From positions 1 to 64,000 of the forward strand of contig CADABS010000006.1 of the NCBI GenBank assembly GCA_902786245.1: DNA of 64,000 bases. Direction: 5' to 3'. This DNA comes from an uncultured Erysipelotrichaceae bacterium (lineage in GTDB: Bacteria > Bacillota_I > Bacilli_A > Erysipelotrichales > Erysipelotrichaceae). Within the stretch, counting starts at the first letter, position 1. The number at the start of each line of letters is the position of its first letter. The notes under the pieces are model-generated. The model was given only the letters and a program-made list of their open reading frames with translations, was not told where the DNA came from and did no database searches. A program made the position numbers and the translations under genes. Shown here piece by piece: positions 51,428 through 61,318 of this stretch.

Positions 51428-53560
51428 ATGAGCAGACCCGATATATACATACTGCAGAGTCTGGAAGACTCTGTTCATACTTTTCTGTCAGATACCGACG
51501 CATGGATCCGCTACGAAGAAACCGATGCGCAGAACATCCGCGCATCCATTGCGGAATACGCAAAGAAACAGATTCTTCCGCTGATGAAAGACATGTCTGT
51601 CGATGAACTGGCAAGACTGAAGCAGAATCTGCGGATCACCGCCCTGAAAGAAAGCGGCTTTCTTTCTCTGGCAGATATTCTGCAGAGCACAAAGAAACAG
51701 CTGGCAGATGTCAACGGCATCTCCGATGAAACCGCAGAATACCTTCTTTCCGCCTGCGAAAGCATCCAGAAAGACATTGCGGCATCCTCGCATTTCAAAC
51801 TGAAAACAGAACCGGAGATGACGGAGATCCTCCGCAGTATCCATACCCTGCTGGGACATGAAAAAATGGTTGTGCGGGCATCTTCTCTGAGTGAAAGATA
51901 CAGAGACAGACTGACTGCCTGTCTGGAAGAAATCCAGCCCCTGAAGAAAAACAGCTTCGCATGGTTTTTCGTATCCGGCCGGAAAAAGAAAGAAGCCCTG
52001 TCTGCCTTTGAAGAACTGCAGGAGATCACTTCATCTGATGCATTCCGCATACTGGATACGCTCCATGACGAAGAAAAGAACCTGCGGGAAATCACCGGCC
52101 AGCAGCTGTTCGAAGACTACCGGACAAGACCTGCCGTCTATGAAAAAGTCCTGATTGAACAGGATGACCGGTTCGTCGATTACGACACGATCGAAGGCGG
52201 CATTCCTTCCCAGATGGCAGCGGAAATCAACCGCCTCGAACTGCATACTGACCTGCTGAAGGCAGAACTGAGAAGCTACCAGACCTTCGGCGTCAAATAC
52301 ATCCTGACCCAGAAGAACGTTCTTCTCGGCGATGAGATGGGCCTTGGCAAAACCGTGGAAGCCATTGCGGCAATGACCCATCTTGCCGCAAACGGTGCCA
52401 TGCATTTCATGGTCGTATGCCCGGCCGGTGTACTGATCAACTGGAACCGGGAAATCCTCCATCACAGCCGGCTGACACCGGTCATGATCCATGGCCGCGA
52501 TATGAACGCACTGGAAGAATGGCTCCGCTATGGAGGTATCGCCGTAACCACCTATGAATCCATATCGAAATTCGATCTTCCCGAAGACTTCGAAATGGAA
52601 ATGATCACCGCGGATGAAGCACAGTACATCAAGAATCCGAATGCCCGGAGAACACAGAGATTCAGAAAATTCTCCCTGCAGGCAAAGCGGACGCTGTATA
52701 TGACCGGAACACCGCTGGAAAACAGAGTTGATGAGATGTGCGAACTGATCCGGGCATTGCAGCCGAATGTCGCACTGGAACTGGAAAGCAGAAAATACCT
52801 TGCGGCAGCCCCGCTGTTCAAAGAACTCGCTGCCCCTGTCTACCTGCGCAGAAGAAGAGAAGACGTACTGAACGAACTTCCGGATATCATCTACACCGAT
52901 GAATGGTGCGAACTGTCCCTGTCCGAACGCATGCAGTATATGCAGGATGTGCGCGACGGAGCTTTCAACCGCATGCGCAGAGTCTCCTGGATCCGGGCAG
53001 ATCTTTTCTCCACAAAGGCAAACCGCCTGAAAGAACTCGTCGAAACCGCAAAGGAAGAAGGCAGAAGAGTACTGGTCTTCTCCTGGTTCCTGGATACAGT
53101 CTGCACGGTCCGTTCCCTGCTGAATGACAGCTGCACAGGTGTCATCACCGGTGCCGTTCGCCCAGCCGAGCGTCAGGAAATCATCGACCGTTTCAGCGAA
53201 GCCCCTCCCGGTTCAGTTCTGATCATGCAGGCAATGGCCGGCGGCATCGGTCTCAATATCCAGAGCGCATCCATGATCATCTTCGCCGAGCCGCAGATCA
53301 AACCCTCCATTGAACAGCAGTCCATTTCCCGTGCCTACCGCATGGGTCAGACCAGAACCGTCACCGTCCACCGGCTGCTGGCCGTCAATACCATTGACGA
53401 AGCCATGTGCGAAATGCTGGAAAGAAAACAGGAGATCTTCGATGCCTTCGCAGATGAATCCGTCATGGCTGAAGAAGAACTCAATACTGCCGAACAGAGC
53501 GCATGGATCCAGTCCATGATCAGAAAGGAACAGGAGAAACTGCAGGAAGAGCTGATGTAA
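51428..53560 (+). CDS. Snf2/SWI2-family ATPase (DEAD-box-like helicase)
   Basis: A 710-aa protein. The N-terminal 280 residues are helical and unassigned. From about 285 it has the Snf2 motifs: VLLGDEMGLGKTVEAIAAM (I), MITADEAQYIKN (DEAQ, II), YMTGTPLENR (III), then the helicase C lobe with VLVFSWFL and motifs LIMQAMAGGIGLNIQSA (V) and ISRAYRMGQTRTVTVHR (VI). It should move on double-stranded DNA or displace DNA-bound proteins. No SWIM zinc or nuclease domain is seen. No SD: a TAGAAT -10-like hexamer lies 6 bases before the ATG, so a leaderless mRNA is possible. Confidence 0.9.
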   Translation: MSRPDIYILQSLEDSVHTFLSDTDAWIRYEETDAQNIRASIAEYAKKQILPLMKDMSVDELARLKQNLRITALKESGFLSLADILQSTKKQLADVNGISDETAEYLLSACESIQKDIAASSHFKLKTEPEMTEILRSIHTLLGHEKMVVRASSLSERYRDRLTACLEEIQPLKKNSFAWFFVSGRKKKEALSAFEELQEITSSDAFRILDTLHDEEKNLREITGQQLFEDYRTRPAVYEKVLIEQDDRFVDYDTIEGGIPSQMAAEINRLELHTDLLKAELRSYQTFGVKYILTQKNVLLGDEMGLGKTVEAIAAMTHLAANGAMHFMVVCPAGVLINWNREILHHSRLTPVMIHGRDMNALEEWLRYGGIAVTTYESISKFDLPEDFEMEMITADEAQYIKNPNARRTQRFRKFSLQAKRTLYMTGTPLENRVDEMCELIRALQPNVALELESRKYLAAAPLFKELAAPVYLRRRREDVLNELPDIIYTDEWCELSLSERMQYMQDVRDGAFNRMRRVSWIRADLFSTKANRLKELVETAKEEGRRVLVFSWFLDTVCTVRSLLNDSCTGVITGAVRPAERQEIIDRFSEAPPGSVLIMQAMAGGIGLNIQSASMIIFAEPQIKPSIEQQSISRAYRMGQTRTVTVHRLLAVNTIDEAMCEMLERKQEIFDAFADESVMAEEELNTAEQSAWIQSMIRKEQEKLQEELM

Positions 53561-53600: not shown

Positions 53601-54035
53601 ATGATAGATAAGAAAACCGCAAAGAAGCTGCGCCACTGGCAGCTCGATATCGTCGACCAGATCGAAGCATTCGAATACATCGTCGACCACTACAAAAAAG
53701 AACCGCAGTATCTGAACCCGGTCAAAAGAGTACTGGAAGAAAGAAAAAAACACCTGGAAATCATGAAAGGTGTTACCGGTATCGATGTCGAACCGGACCA
53801 GAACGATCTGAAATACTCCAAGCGCATTCTGAAATTCTTCTCTGACCGCAGACTGTTCAGCTGCTGGGCGGGCGTTCTTTCGGAAAACGCAAGAATGCAT
53901 ACGGAAATGACTGCAGAGTTTCCTCAGCTCAAGCGGATCGTCGAAGCAGAAAAAAGATTCTCTGATTCCCTGAAACGGACTGAACTCGTCGCAAAGAAAC
54001 AAAGAGATCTGAACAGAAAGATCAACAGCAACTGA
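53601..54035 (+). CDS. Coiled-coil-rich basic protein, unknown function
   Basis: A 144-aa protein without signal or membrane segment, mostly alpha-helical and rich in Lys/Arg/Glu (KKPQYLNPVKRVLEERKKH-like region). No family recognised. It follows the Snf2 gene after 40 bases, with a TATAAT directly before the ATG and no SD, hence probably leaderless. A strong terminator follows. Confidence 0.75.
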   Translation: MIDKKTAKKLRHWQLDIVDQIEAFEYIVDHYKKEPQYLNPVKRVLEERKKHLEIMKGVTGIDVEPDQNDLKYSKRILKFFSDRRLFSCWAGVLSENARMHTEMTAEFPQLKRIVEAEKRFSDSLKRTELVAKKQRDLNRKINSN

Positions 54036-55160: not shown

Positions 55161-55300
55161 AATCATGGCCCTCCGGTTCAGATATATAAACGATTCATCA
55201 ATATTATCTCACACCGGATAAACCATATATATTTTTTTCAGATTCATCATGCGCTTTTCTGATTCTGATGCGAATACATATATCAGAAAGGCGGTGCAAT

Positions 55301-56113
55301 ATGATAAATAAAAATCCTAGAGAGGAATACAGAAACCTGACCATCCGGAACAGTTTTATGTTCAATGCTGTGTTTTCGGATCACCGACTGCTCGCTGAGC
55401 TTCTTGCCCGGATCCTGCCCCAGGAACATCTCGACCCCAACGGCATTATCATCAGGGAAAAGGATGACAAACAGTACATCCAGGCAAGAGGAGTACGCTA
55501 TGACGTATACCTCAGCAGCGGCACACATCTGTTCGATGTAGAACTGCAGATTGAACAGGACAGATTCCTGTTTGACAGAGCTGTGTACAATGCCTCCGCA
55601 ATGATTCAGTCGCAGGTTCATCCCGGAACGGACAGTTATGAACTGACATTCAAAACATACGTAATATTTATCTGTGCTTTCGATGTCAACCGTGGAAGAA
55701 GACTGAGACATTTCACGTTCAAAGATGATGAAGGAAAGAACTCATTTGACAAGGTCAATATCATCATGATCGGCTGTGTATCAAAAGAAAACGATAATGA
55801 ACAGCTGAAAACATTCGCGGACTACATCATGGATCCCGCAAAAATGCCAGATGATCCGTTCATCCGCGAAATCGAACATGGTGTAGAATTAAAGCGGAAA
55901 GATCCGGAAAGCGAGAAATCATATATGGATTGGATGTATGAGCGGATGAAAGCTGTCAGAGAAACAAGAATAAGGGACGTGCAGACAATGTATGAAATCC
56001 TGATGGAAGATGGATATACCCATGAAAAGGCTGTCAGCCGGATTTCCGGCAAGTTTGAAATTACACCTGCTGCGATTGAAAAAATGCTTGCGGAATCTGA
56101 AGATAACAGATGA
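55301..56113 (+). CDS. Rpn-family PD-(D/E)XK nuclease (recombination-promoting/putative transposase)
   Basis: A 270-aa protein. N-terminal NSFMFNAVFSDHRLLAELLARILP, core EVxxQ-like VELQIEQDRFLFDRAVYNAS, typical of Rpn/T31 PD-(D/E)XK proteins (IPR010106-like), with the VRYDVYLSSGTHLFDVELQ metal/nuclease site (D and ExQ). It could promote recombination or act in defence. ATG 55301 is preferred (AGGCGG SD), 33 bases into the open frame. Followed by a good terminator at 56119-56150. Related stub at 49613. Confidence 0.88.
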   Translation: MINKNPREEYRNLTIRNSFMFNAVFSDHRLLAELLARILPQEHLDPNGIIIREKDDKQYIQARGVRYDVYLSSGTHLFDVELQIEQDRFLFDRAVYNASAMIQSQVHPGTDSYELTFKTYVIFICAFDVNRGRRLRHFTFKDDEGKNSFDKVNIIMIGCVSKENDNEQLKTFADYIMDPAKMPDDPFIREIEHGVELKRKDPESEKSYMDWMYERMKAVRETRIRDVQTMYEILMEDGYTHEKAVSRISGKFEITPAAIEKMLAESEDNR

Positions 56114-59322: not shown

Positions 59323-60540
59323 TTATGATTCTTCAGCCAGTTTCCGGCTGTCTTCCTTCCAGCGGTAATACTCTGCCACCAAAGGCGTATAGCCCAGTTT
59401 CTTCAGGTGTTCATATGTGATGGCATAGTTTCCTTTATTGTGCTTTCCTGTCTTCAGATACCGCAGATACCGGATCATGCATGTATCGATTTCGTGCAGC
59501 CCATCTGTCCTTGTCAGCAGCGGAAAATAGAACCGGGTCCAGGTAAAACTGCCCGATCCGCTGAGATCATAGAATATACTGTCAAAAGAACGGATCATGG
59601 AACGCGCAGCCGCATCATAGGACGAATGATTCTGTTTCCGCCTGCGCCAGAACTTCTTTGCTTTCCTTCTGATCTTCCGCTTCATTTTTTCCACTGTACT
59701 CTGCGCAAGATCAATTTCTCCCCGCTCATAGCGAAAACCGAGAAACTCCCATGGTTCACCCGGTTCTGATATTTTCTGTTTTTCTTCATTCAGAATCAGA
59801 CCCATCTGCCCCAGATAATCTGTGATCTCCTGCAGACATGTATTCATTTCTTCTTCGGTATCGAAGAAAAGAATCATGTCATCGGAATAGCGGAAATACG
59901 GAATGCCTTTTTCTTCCATCTGCCGGTCCATCTCTGTCAGATATACATCTGCCAGGAAGCCGGATATTGGCACACCTGCCATGGCGCCTCTTTTTTCATT
60001 GATGATCTGTCCTTCCCAAATGCACGCATCCTGTTCCAGCAGATCCCGGAAAAACATGTACAGTTTTTCATCCTGTGCAAATACGTTCTTCAGCTGAGAA
60101 AGCAGTATATCCGTATGTATGGAATTGAAATAATCATGAATATCCAGTTTCAGCACATATTTCCTGTCAATATCACGGATCATGCGTATGTCGCGGAACG
60201 CTGATCCTGCATGTCTGTCTCTGCGGAACGAATACAGATGATCTGAAAAATACGGATCAAAGATATACAGCTGCCATGCCAGCATTTTCAGGATCCATGT
60301 TTCATCGCTGCTGTAGCAGTACACTGTTCTTTTCTTCTGCGAACTCCGCTTGGCGATCATCCTTTTCTGCGGCAGGGAAAAATGCATATTGTCCTGAAAC
60401 GCAAGATACCGTTTTTCCGCAATGAAAGCATCCAGCTCTTCCGATTCCGCTTTGGACAGCTGGTTTCTTTCTGTTTTACAGGCACGGAAGTCATTCCATG
60501 CGTTTTGATCTGTCAGGATATCCAGCAGTGAATGCATCAT
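59323..60540 (-). CDS. Stand-alone reverse transcriptase
   Basis: A 405-aa RT (about 435 if an unsupported 30-codon extension is used). Palm motifs: KLDIHDYFNSI (domain 3), GVPISGFLADVYL (domain 4), FRYSDDMILFF (catalytic YSDD, domain 5), and NEEKQKISEPGEPWEFLGFR (domains 6-7). The thumb-like C-terminus has FTWTRFYFPLLTRTDG and YLRYLKTGKHNKGNY. There is no maturase X or HNH endonuclease, so it is not a full group II intron protein, and I find no retron NAxxH/VTG motif. It best fits an unclassified, possibly defence-type RT. It lies 13 bases behind the inverted-repeat RNA (60554-60685). No SD. Confidence 0.85.
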   Translation of the reverse strand: MMHSLLDILTDQNAWNDFRACKTERNQLSKAESEELDAFIAEKRYLAFQDNMHFSLPQKRMIAKRSSQKKRTVYCYSSDETWILKMLAWQLYIFDPYFSDHLYSFRRDRHAGSAFRDIRMIRDIDRKYVLKLDIHDYFNSIHTDILLSQLKNVFAQDEKLYMFFRDLLEQDACIWEGQIINEKRGAMAGVPISGFLADVYLTEMDRQMEEKGIPYFRYSDDMILFFDTEEEMNTCLQEITDYLGQMGLILNEEKQKISEPGEPWEFLGFRYERGEIDLAQSTVEKMKRKIRRKAKKFWRRRKQNHSSYDAAARSMIRSFDSIFYDLSGSGSFTWTRFYFPLLTRTDGLHEIDTCMIRYLRYLKTGKHNKGNYAITYEHLKKLGYTPLVAEYYRWKEDSRKLAEES

Positions 60541-60553
60541 GTCAAAGAAAAAA

Positions 60554-60685
60554 AGGAAAGAGAAATTGCTTTGAAGTAAGCTGTGCTTCCGATACCGGCA
60601 GGTACGTGACCGGACTGCCCGCAAAGCCATACCATGCGGTCACGCTGCAGCCGCCGCAGGCGCGTTATACGCTTTTCTCTTTCCT
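60554..60685 (-). ncRNA. Candidate structured RNA upstream of the RT gene (12-bp inverted-repeat bounded)
   Basis: On the minus strand the 132-nt stretch starts AGGAAAGAGAAA (60685-60674) and ends TTTCTCTTTCCT (60565-60554), a perfect 12-bp terminal stem like a retron a1/a2 pair. Inside: AGC follows a1 directly; the hairpins GCGT-ATA-ACGC (60662-60672), CTGC/GCAG (60645-60659) and an 8-bp CGTGACCG/CGGTCACG stem (60605-60612 with 60637-60644). It lies 11 bases past the 60697 gene stop. A T-run follows the second arm (60541-60553), so a terminator with a large loop is the alternative reading. Confidence 0.55.
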
Positions 60686-60696
60686 GATCAATGCGG

Positions 60697-61224
60697 CTAC
60701 AGATACTTATGGAGCCGCTGCGAAATGTATTCCGGACGATTCGGATAATGTTCAATAAAATTGATGAAGGTGATACCGTTCTTCTGCGCTTCTTCTTTGC
60801 TCCAGCGGTATTCCCGGTGCGAAGCTGTTGTCTTTCCGATCAGCATCATGATCAGTTTCGGCTTTTCTCCGTCACAGACAACAATGGAATAATCCATAAA
60901 TCTGCCTGTACCGCCGAAGGTTCTCGGCGATACATTTTCACGGACCGTGTACTGCGGGAATTCATCTGCCAGCACCTCCAGAATTCTCTGCCGGCATGTC
61001 TTTCCGTCATTCATCGGCGTATACATGGACGGTGTTTCACTGTTCTCCTGTGCAGCAGGCTGGCTGCTGAGTTCATCGACGTAGTTTTTCAGTTCTCCTG
61101 CATGTTCCTGAATCGTATCCTTCAGGGAATTGAACAGAGCAGATGCTTTTTCCTTGTTTTCGTCACTGACTGCTTCTTTCAGTGCTTCAGCGCCTTCTTT
61201 GAGAAGTTTATCAAAAAGTCCCAT
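60697..61224 (-). CDS. Conserved-looking hypothetical protein, unknown function
   Basis: A 175-aa soluble protein. The N-terminal 60 residues are a charged helix (DKLLKEGAEALKEAVSDENK), the C-terminal half has RQRILEVLADEFPQYTVREN and MDYSIVVCDGEKPKLIMMLI, which hints at a small nuclease-like or NTF2-like alpha/beta fold, but I cannot assign it. SD AAGGAG. Directly upstream of the RNA element and RT on the same strand, so it may be a partner or just a neighbour. Confidence 0.75.
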   Translation of the reverse strand: MGLFDKLLKEGAEALKEAVSDENKEKASALFNSLKDTIQEHAGELKNYVDELSSQPAAQENSETPSMYTPMNDGKTCRQRILEVLADEFPQYTVRENVSPRTFGGTGRFMDYSIVVCDGEKPKLIMMLIGKTTASHREYRWSKEEAQKNGITFINFIEHYPNRPEYISQRLHKYL

Positions 61225-61318
61225 GGTTCTCCTTCCCGGCGTATGCCTGATGAATTATTATCTTTCAAAGGGATCTCTGTCTGTTTTCATTATACATGAA
61301 TCATGCATGCACTCAACA

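What the first reader, a model, noticed from the sequence alone, without database searches (positions are those of the whole stretch)
59323..60685. Stand-alone reverse transcriptase preceded by a 132-nt inverted-repeat-bounded RNA
The RT has YSDD and GVPISGFLADVYL motifs, no endonuclease or maturase domain, and sits behind an RNA-like element. That element has a perfect 12-bp a1/a2-like stem, an AGC directly after a1, several short hairpins and a GC-rich 8-bp stem. This arrangement recalls retron msr-msd and defence RT (DRT) ncRNAs, yet the RT lacks retron NAxxH/VTG motifs. It may be an undescribed RT-ncRNA defence unit. The T-run after a2 means a large-loop terminator is possible.
Basis: partly seen in the sequence, partly recalled or inferred. 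Interest (0 to 1): 0.8.

Follow-up and report, generated by a model that had tools for sequence, protein, structure and literature searches.

The report
Three-part RT, structured RNA, accessory cassette
A gut bacterium carries a compact three-part unit (a small accessory protein, a 132-nt pseudoknotted RNA and a reverse transcriptase) that is conserved across several bacterial phyla and probably makes DNA from the RNA to fight phages, although each part had only been catalogued separately and no function has been tested.

Summary
A perfect 12-bp inverted repeat (60554-60565 / 60674-60685, minus strand) bounds a 132-nt element directly before an intact reverse transcriptase (RT) that starts at 60540, not 60630. 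It is more than chance: the RNA precedes the RT in 76 of 78 related loci in Bacillota, Bacteroidota and Actinomycetota, with strong covariation. The RNA is Rfam RT-5 and the RT is PADLOC class UG26, so neither part is undescribed. It is not a retron: the "AGC" after the stem belongs to a second helix.

Beyond the finding: (1) the closing stem, absent from the Rfam model, is real; (2) a conserved pseudoknot is 99.7% paired with compensatory changes; (3) a nearly invariant UUCAAA loop lies where DRT10, as described, carries its template; (4) the RT is not stand-alone: a 175-aa gene (60697-61224) precedes the RNA in 66 of 78 loci and, in related genomes, occurs only with the cassette.

Best reading: an untested class 2 DRT-like defence unit whose RNA templates short, probably protein-primed repetitive cDNA. 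The RNA-RT partnership is well supported; template, product, defence and accessory role are inferred.

The parts
60697..61224 (-). Accessory gene, 175 aa: amphipathic N-terminal helix, coiled region, C-terminal (about 77-175) degenerate Vsr/PD-(D/E)XK-like domain; matches PADLOC RTasCOG2852
   Evidence: Upstream of the RNA in 66 of 78 loci; in relatives only in the 8 genomes with RT-5+UG26; PADLOC hit in 37 of 56 members; AlphaFold model with I-Bth0305I Z 9.0, Vsr Z 7.9
60554..60685 (-). RT-5 ncRNA, 132 nt, including closing stem P1
   Evidence: RF03026 64.7 bits over 60562-60665; model R1 built here 123.4 bits, sole hit in the genome (the window was among the sequences the model was built from)
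60674..60685 (-). P1 5' strand (purine-rich AGGAAAGAGAAA)
60554..60565 (-). P1 3' strand (UUUCUCUUUCCU), running into a U-tract
60662..60672 (-).
   Evidence: 91% of cells paired, compensatory changes
60656..60661 (-). Pseudoknot 5' strand GCCUGC
   Evidence: 99.7% paired over 49 sequences, 4 of 6 pairs with changes on both sides
60617..60622 (-). Pseudoknot 3' strand GCGGGC, in the loop of P4
60604..60645 (-). P3 (8 bp, 60638-60645 with 60604-60611) enclosing P4 (60625-60628 with 60613-60616)
   Evidence: P3 97% and 89% paired (two blocks), P4 92%, compensatory changes in most pairs
60576..60590 (-). P5 hairpin just upstream of the candidate template loop
   Evidence: all 6 pairs show compensatory changes
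60566..60575 (-). Candidate template loop UUCAAAGCAA
   Evidence: UUCAAA in 66 of 73 homologues; position analogous to the DRT10 template loop as described in PMC12632851; template role inferred
60548..60554 (-). U-tract after P1, possible large-loop terminator
   Evidence: sequence; 57% T in the stretch around the 3' end of P1 over the loci
59323..60540 (-). UG26 reverse transcriptase, 405 aa, start ATG 60540, catalytic aspartates D133, D220, D221 invariant
   Evidence: PADLOC RT_UG26 E 2.1e-141; alignment of 72 relatives; AlphaFold pLDDT 93.7
61289..61316 (-). Promoter-like site upstream of the accessory gene (TTGAGT-16-TATAAT)
   Evidence: consensus scan, 2 sites found with 1.0 expected by chance; weak

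Best explanation
The locus is a three-component cassette: accessory gene, RT-5 ncRNA, UG26 RT. Shown by comparison: the RNA is a conserved, pseudoknotted partner of this RT subclade, and the accessory gene is genetically linked to both. Inferred: the RT binds the RNA as a ribonucleoprotein; the short loop UUCAAAGCNN between hairpin P5 (5' template boundary) and closing stem P1 is copied, probably repeatedly and probably primed by a hydroxyl residue of the RT, giving short repetitive cDNA as in DRT9 (UG28) and DRT10 (UG17); phage infection changes the amount or state of this DNA, and the accessory protein, which has lost recognisable nuclease residues and may sit at the membrane, reads that change and harms the infected cell.
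For: RT is UG26 (469 bits), next best UG17/DRT10 (112 bits). RNA is RT-5, within about 150 nt upstream of the RT in nearly all of 76 of 78 loci. Closing stem, P2-P5 and pseudoknot covary. UUCAAA invariant in 66 of 73 although the following nucleotides vary, placed directly after a stable hairpin; [quoted passage not shown] Accessory: 66 of 78 loci, same genomes in the genus, distances correlate with the RT (r 0.85, 0 of 1000 permutations). RTasCOG2852 occurs in 1 of 392 phylum genomes, the one with RT-5 beside it. Amphipathic N-terminus (shuffle p <= 0.05 in 80%), replaced by a clear transmembrane helix in L090. RT model resembles GsI-IIC, G2L4, DRT9 and DRT2 RTs. The authors of PMC12632851 state that every characterised UG enzyme has been implicated in phage defence.
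Against: No expression, activity or phage data. The A-B-A' signature of DRT10 is not clearly met: a 3-nt repeat is present in 63 of 73 sequences, mostly UUC 10-11 nt later, but the second copy overlaps P1, and the UUG variants do not carry a matching copy. DRT10 template loops are poorly conserved, whereas this one is nearly invariant, which would also fit an RT-binding motif. The accessory is missing in 12 of 78 loci including a whole Ruminococcus clade, so it is not always needed. Neighbouring genes are mostly metabolic, not a clear defence island. Correlated distances also arise from joint inheritance. A UG26 RT at 35% identity (L015) has no detectable RT-5 beside it.
Confidence: 0.55

Rival explanations
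1. Retron: the RNA is an msr-msd and the RT makes branched msDNA from it.
For: Inverted repeat bounding the RNA upstream of an RT, and an AGC after the first arm in the window.
Against: Retron RT models score far below cut-off (St85 61 against 235 bits). NAxxH in 3 and VTG in 5 of 72 RTs. The G after a1 pairs within P2 in 46 of 49 sequences, plus 2 as G-U. RT-5 has a pseudoknot and no long msd hairpin.
Confidence: 0.03
2. Cis-acting leader or attenuator: the structure with its U-tract terminates transcription and controls RT expression, without being a template.
For: T-run after P1; the RT start follows within 30 nt in 56 loci, of which only 6 have a Shine-Dalgarno-like motif, so the RNA and RT start are tightly packed.
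Against: The RNA keeps its full architecture when it lies 45-145 nt from the RT with an own ribosome-binding motif (12 of 16 long-gap loci; L082, L104). The invariant loop and pseudoknot exceed what a terminator needs. The two roles do not exclude each other.
Confidence: 0.15
3. DRT2-like: rolling-circle copying of most of the RNA creates a concatemeric gene.
For: One frame of the window RNA concatemer is open.
Against: Only 20 of 73 homologues have any open frame when the whole RNA is concatenated (11.6 in shuffles), and RNA length mod 3 is not conserved. Partial-template versions were not exhaustively tested.
Confidence: 0.05
4. The RT-RNA unit is real but serves something other than phage defence, for example a housekeeping or mobile-element function.
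For: Flanks are mostly metabolic genes; in Ruminococcus the RT-RNA pair sits between the same chromosomal genes in several species.
Against: Patchy presence in close relatives (8 of 36 genus genomes, the window's own included, carry the full cassette), variable sites, spread over at least three phyla, and the defence role of characterised UG relatives.
Confidence: 0.2

Closest known systems
DRT10 (UG17 RT + ncRNA + SLATT), PMC12632851
   Same: Second-best RT profile; ncRNA of similar length (137 vs 132 nt) with closing stem, inner stem-loops and a loop after a stable hairpin; small accessory gene next to the RT; SLATT is a predicted membrane protein and this accessory has a possible membrane-binding N-terminus
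   Different: RT belongs to UG26, not UG17; accessory is a degenerate Vsr-like protein, not SLATT; loop sequence nearly invariant instead of variable; A-B-A' pattern not established. A pseudoknot was not looked for in DRT10 here
DRT9 (UG28 RT + ncRNA), PMC12483538, PMC12489045
   Same: RT fold (Z 23); ncRNA with a conserved template loop
   Different: DRT9 template is a poly-U tract and the RNA is 188 nt; here the invariant motif is UUCAAA and its template role is only inferred
Rfam RT-5 RNA (RF03026)
   Same: The window RNA is a member above the gathering score
   Different: The Rfam model ends at the closing stem without pairing it and does not draw the pseudoknot; both are shown here
PADLOC RT_UG26 and RTasCOG2852
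   Same: RT and accessory match these DRT-candidate profiles
   Different: The profiles list parts only; no RNA is attached in the hits seen here. What the source papers say on these classes could not be read
Vsr / I-Bth0305I PD-(D/E)XK nucleases
   Same: Fold of the accessory C-terminal domain in the predicted model
   Different: No acidic residue of an active site is conserved; invariant are F156, N162, Y166, R170

Membership tests
UG26 reverse transcriptase (PADLOC RT_UG26) | Full-length match to the class profile, best among all RT profiles | tested here: met
   E 2.1e-141, profile 2-397 of 398; next best class UG17 5.6e-33
Rfam RT-5 RNA (RF03026) | Covariance-model score above the curated gathering score | tested here: met
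   64.7 against 45.7 bits, full model 1-104
PADLOC RTasCOG2852 | Profile match over the whole protein | tested here: met
   E 1.6e-5 over residues 1-175; 37 of 56 homologues at E <= 0.001; PADLOC gives no curated cut-off here
Retron | Retron-type RT above the curated model cut-offs, with NAxxH and VTG motifs | tested here: not met
   St85 61.4 bits (cut-off 235), others lower; motifs in 3 and 5 of 72
Retron | Unpaired branching G after a1 and an msd hairpin | tested here: not met
   The G is paired in P2 in 46 of 49 (GC) plus 2 GU
DRT10 | RT of class UG17 | tested here: not met
   UG26 469 bits against UG17 112 bits
DRT10 | SLATT partner gene | tested here: not met
   The recurrent neighbour is the COG2852-type accessory; no other partner recurs
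DRT10 | ncRNA with closing stem, four inner stem-loops and a loop directly after a stable stem-loop | tested here: met
   P1 with P2, P3/P4, P5 and loop, compared only with the text of PMC12632851, not with a DRT10 alignment
DRT10 | A-B-A' template repeat | tested here: inconclusive
   63 of 73 carry a 3-nt repeat against 38.7 in shuffles, but confounded by P1 and not matched in the UUG variants
DRT10 | C-terminal priming residue and tandem-repeat cDNA | not testable with these tools
   Y376 is invariant in 72 RTs and is only a candidate
DRT9 | Poly-U template in the ncRNA | tested here: not met
   Invariant loop is UUCAAA
DRT2 | Concatemer of the template forms a continuous gene | tested here: not met
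   20 of 73 open with the whole RNA as template; partial templates not exhaustively tested
Group II intron | Maturase model above cut-off and intron RNA | tested here: not met
   TIGR04416 132.6 against cut-off 300; no intron RNA family in the locus
PD-(D/E)XK / Vsr nuclease (accessory) | Fold | tested here: met
   I-Bth0305I Z 9.0 over 88 residues, Vsr Z 7.9; Foldseek alone found nothing below E 0.1, so moderate
PD-(D/E)XK / Vsr nuclease (accessory) | Conserved catalytic acidic residues | tested here: not met
   No invariant D/E in the C-terminal domain of 56 homologues
Anti-phage defence system | Protection against phage | not testable with these tools
   Needs experiment

The most novel reading that the evidence does not exclude
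UG26/RT-5 works on the principle of telomerase: an RT with a pseudoknot-bearing template RNA that adds short repeats read from the UUCAAA loop, and the DNA is sensed by a membrane-tethered, catalytically dead Vsr-like protein, a DNA-product/effector pairing not described for other DRTs in the papers read here.
Probability: 0.25. Interest if true: 0.85.

Novelty: new variant of a known kind. Interest (0 to 1): 0.6.

Why it matters
Three entries that sit in separate catalogues (an Rfam RNA of unknown role, an uncharacterised RT class and an RT-associated gene) turn out to be one compact, horizontally spread cassette. It gives the RT-5 RNA a partner and a likely job, defines cassette boundaries for cloning, and offers a further test of the proposal that repetitive, RNA-templated DNA synthesis unifies class 2 DRTs and links them to telomerase. 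The conserved pseudoknot and invariant loop make exact mutants easy to design.

Tried and rejected
Close relatives in plasmid and phage records: none at E 1e-30; IMG/VR gave two distant matches only. UG17 loci for a direct RNA comparison: none in 245 phylum genomes, which does not show absence. DRT2-like concatemer gene: not conserved. A-B-A' repeat: inconclusive. A weak RT-5 match 12 kb from another UG26 RT in one relative (L011, 42 bits, below cut-off) lies beside an IS200-type transposase and not an RT. Literature: no held paper on RT-5 or RF03026, nor on COG2852 with RTs; UG26 is named only as found in cold-seep viruses; the papers on the 224 RNA motifs and on UG/Abi RTs are not held, so a prior linkage of RT-5 with UG26 cannot be excluded. 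My ORF finder missed the accessory in L039 and L045; tblastn finds it. The stem finder gave a spurious site in L103, corrected by the covariance model. Two E. coli look-ups were of no use.

Full report
What is there. On the minus strand of the window lie, in order: a 175-aa gene (61224-60697), an 11-nt gap, a 132-nt element bounded by a perfect 12-bp inverted repeat (60685-60554), and a reverse transcriptase of 405 aa (60540-59323).

Identity of the parts. The RT matches PADLOC RT_UG26 over its full length (E 2.1e-141), with UG17 (DRT10) the next class at 5.6e-33. Pfam sees only RVT_1. Group II and retron models stay below their cut-offs. The RNA scores 64.7 bits against Rfam RT-5, gathering score 45.7. 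The small gene matches PADLOC RTasCOG2852 (E 1.6e-5), as do 37 of 56 family members. So each part had been catalogued, in separate places.

Conservation of the RNA. A scan of bacterial and archaeal genomes with an alignment of nine RTs gave 80 loci, mostly ruminant-gut Erysipelotrichaceae, Clostridia, Bacteroidales and a few Actinomycetota. For 78 with the RT start present, the RNA lies upstream in 76; the two others are L100, cut by the contig end, and L070. The closing stem P1 differs in sequence between clades (GAAAGAGAAA/UUUCUCUUUC in Erysipelotrichaceae, GAAAAAGGGGA/UCCCCUUUUUC in Bacteroidales, GGCGGGGAGGGCGGAA/UUCCGCCCUUCCCGCC in a Coriobacteriales genome). Cognate strands score 9.8 against 6.0 for strands from different clades, and none of 2000 permutations reaches the observed sum. 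The stem finder favours stems, but the permutation treats cognate and non-cognate pairs alike.

Inner structure. On a 49-sequence MAFFT alignment, the structure taken from Rfam plus a P2 hairpin and a pseudoknot that I proposed by eye pairs in 89% of cells against 72% in shuffles, with 262 cells changed on both sides against 85. The pseudoknot GCCUGC with GC(A/G)GGC in the P4 loop is paired in 99.7% of cells, with compensatory changes in 4 of 6 pairs; sliding the partner by one column drops it to 19-36%. The Rfam consensus line shows these bases unpaired.

Candidate template. Between P5 and the 3' strand of P1 lies a loop of 10-12 nt that begins UUCAAA in 66 of 73 sequences; positions 7 and 8 are mostly GC in Bacillota and A/U in Bacteroidales, and the next two are free. 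[quoted passage not shown] RT-5 fits this description, but I compared it with text only. The DRT10 A-B-A' signature is inconclusive here: UUC usually recurs 10-11 nt later, but inside or at the edge of P1, and the four UUG variants do not keep a matching copy. I therefore claim the loop as the best template candidate, and make no claim on the exact product.

The third gene. tblastn with the 175-aa protein finds a relative directly upstream of the RNA in 66 of 78 loci, down to about 25% identity in Bacteroidales. Among 60 genomes (the window's own and 59 relatives) it occurs, apart from weak coiled-coil hits, in exactly the 8 that carry RT-5 beside UG26. In 392 genomes of the phylum the RTasCOG2852 family rings once, next to the RT-5 of that same genome. 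No other neighbour recurs across the loci as a whole. Distances of accessory and RT correlate (r 0.85), as joint inheritance would also give. It is missing in 12 loci, among them a Ruminococcus clade with conserved flanks.

Fold of the accessory. The C-terminal 100 residues are predicted with high confidence and align best with I-Bth0305I (Z 9.0) and Vsr (Z 7.9); Foldseek alone gives nothing significant. No acidic active-site residue is conserved; F156, N162, Y166 and R170 are invariant. The first 18 residues form an amphipathic helix in 80% of homologues by a shuffle test, and a plain transmembrane helix in L090. Membrane attachment is an inference, and amphipathic helices also occur in coiled coils.

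Expression layout. No room for a promoter exists between the accessory stop and the RNA; a promoter-like site precedes the accessory gene, at a rate close to chance. A T-run follows P1. In loci where the RT starts within 30 nt only 6 of 56 have a Shine-Dalgarno-like motif, against 12 of 16 with longer gaps. A plausible reading is one operon in which the RNA 3' end forms at P1 plus the T-run and the RT is made at low level by read-through; this is untested.

Mobility. The cassette is patchy within the genus; in one cassette-free relative (G011) the same two flanking genes lie 4.1 kb apart with unrelated genes between them. The RT tree mixes families and phyla; some contig taxonomies come from metagenome bins and may be wrong.

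Mechanism and verdict. By sequence class and fold (GsI-IIC, G2L4, DGR, DRT9 and DRT2 RTs) and by RNA layout, the unit works most likely like the ncRNA-templated class 2 DRTs. It is not a retron, DRT2, DRT9 or DRT10 by tested features. Defence is inferred from relatives: the DRT10 authors state that all characterised UG enzymes have been implicated in phage defence. I rate it a new variant of a known kind.

Noticed in passing
window 51428-53560 (+): SNF2-type helicase of 710 aa matching PADLOC DrmD (1.3e-121) and DpdE profiles, followed by a 144-aa ORF at 53601-54035; no further DISARM or Dpd genes were looked for.
   Followed up: partly
window 55268-56113 (+): PD-(D/E)XK nuclease family transposase (PF12784, 1.3e-11) close to the cassette.
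   Followed up: no
L002 (G000:C16:49860-50510): A second, distant RT (25% identity, E 3.9e-17) near a contig end of the same genome.
   Followed up: no
L011 1493-1619 (-): Weak RT-5-like RNA (42 bits Rfam, 28.9 bits own model, E 0.0007) beside an IS200-type transposase instead of an RT.
   Followed up: partly
L015: UG26 RT (35% identity to the window's) with neither RT-5 nor the accessory gene next to it; it may have another RNA.
   Followed up: partly
L025, L027, L041, L042, L048 accessory genes: The accessory N-terminal region carries one to three copies of a coiled repeat (around SEENKEKA), so its length varies from 129 to over 200 aa.
   Followed up: no
L066, L068, L069, L073, L089: Ruminococcus clade with RNA and RT between the same chromosomal genes, without the accessory; four of the five have UUGAA instead of UUCAA in the loop.
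   Followed up: partly
closing stem P1 in nearly all loci: The 5' strand is almost purely purine and the 3' strand almost purely pyrimidine although the sequence changes between clades; the reason is unknown.
   Followed up: no
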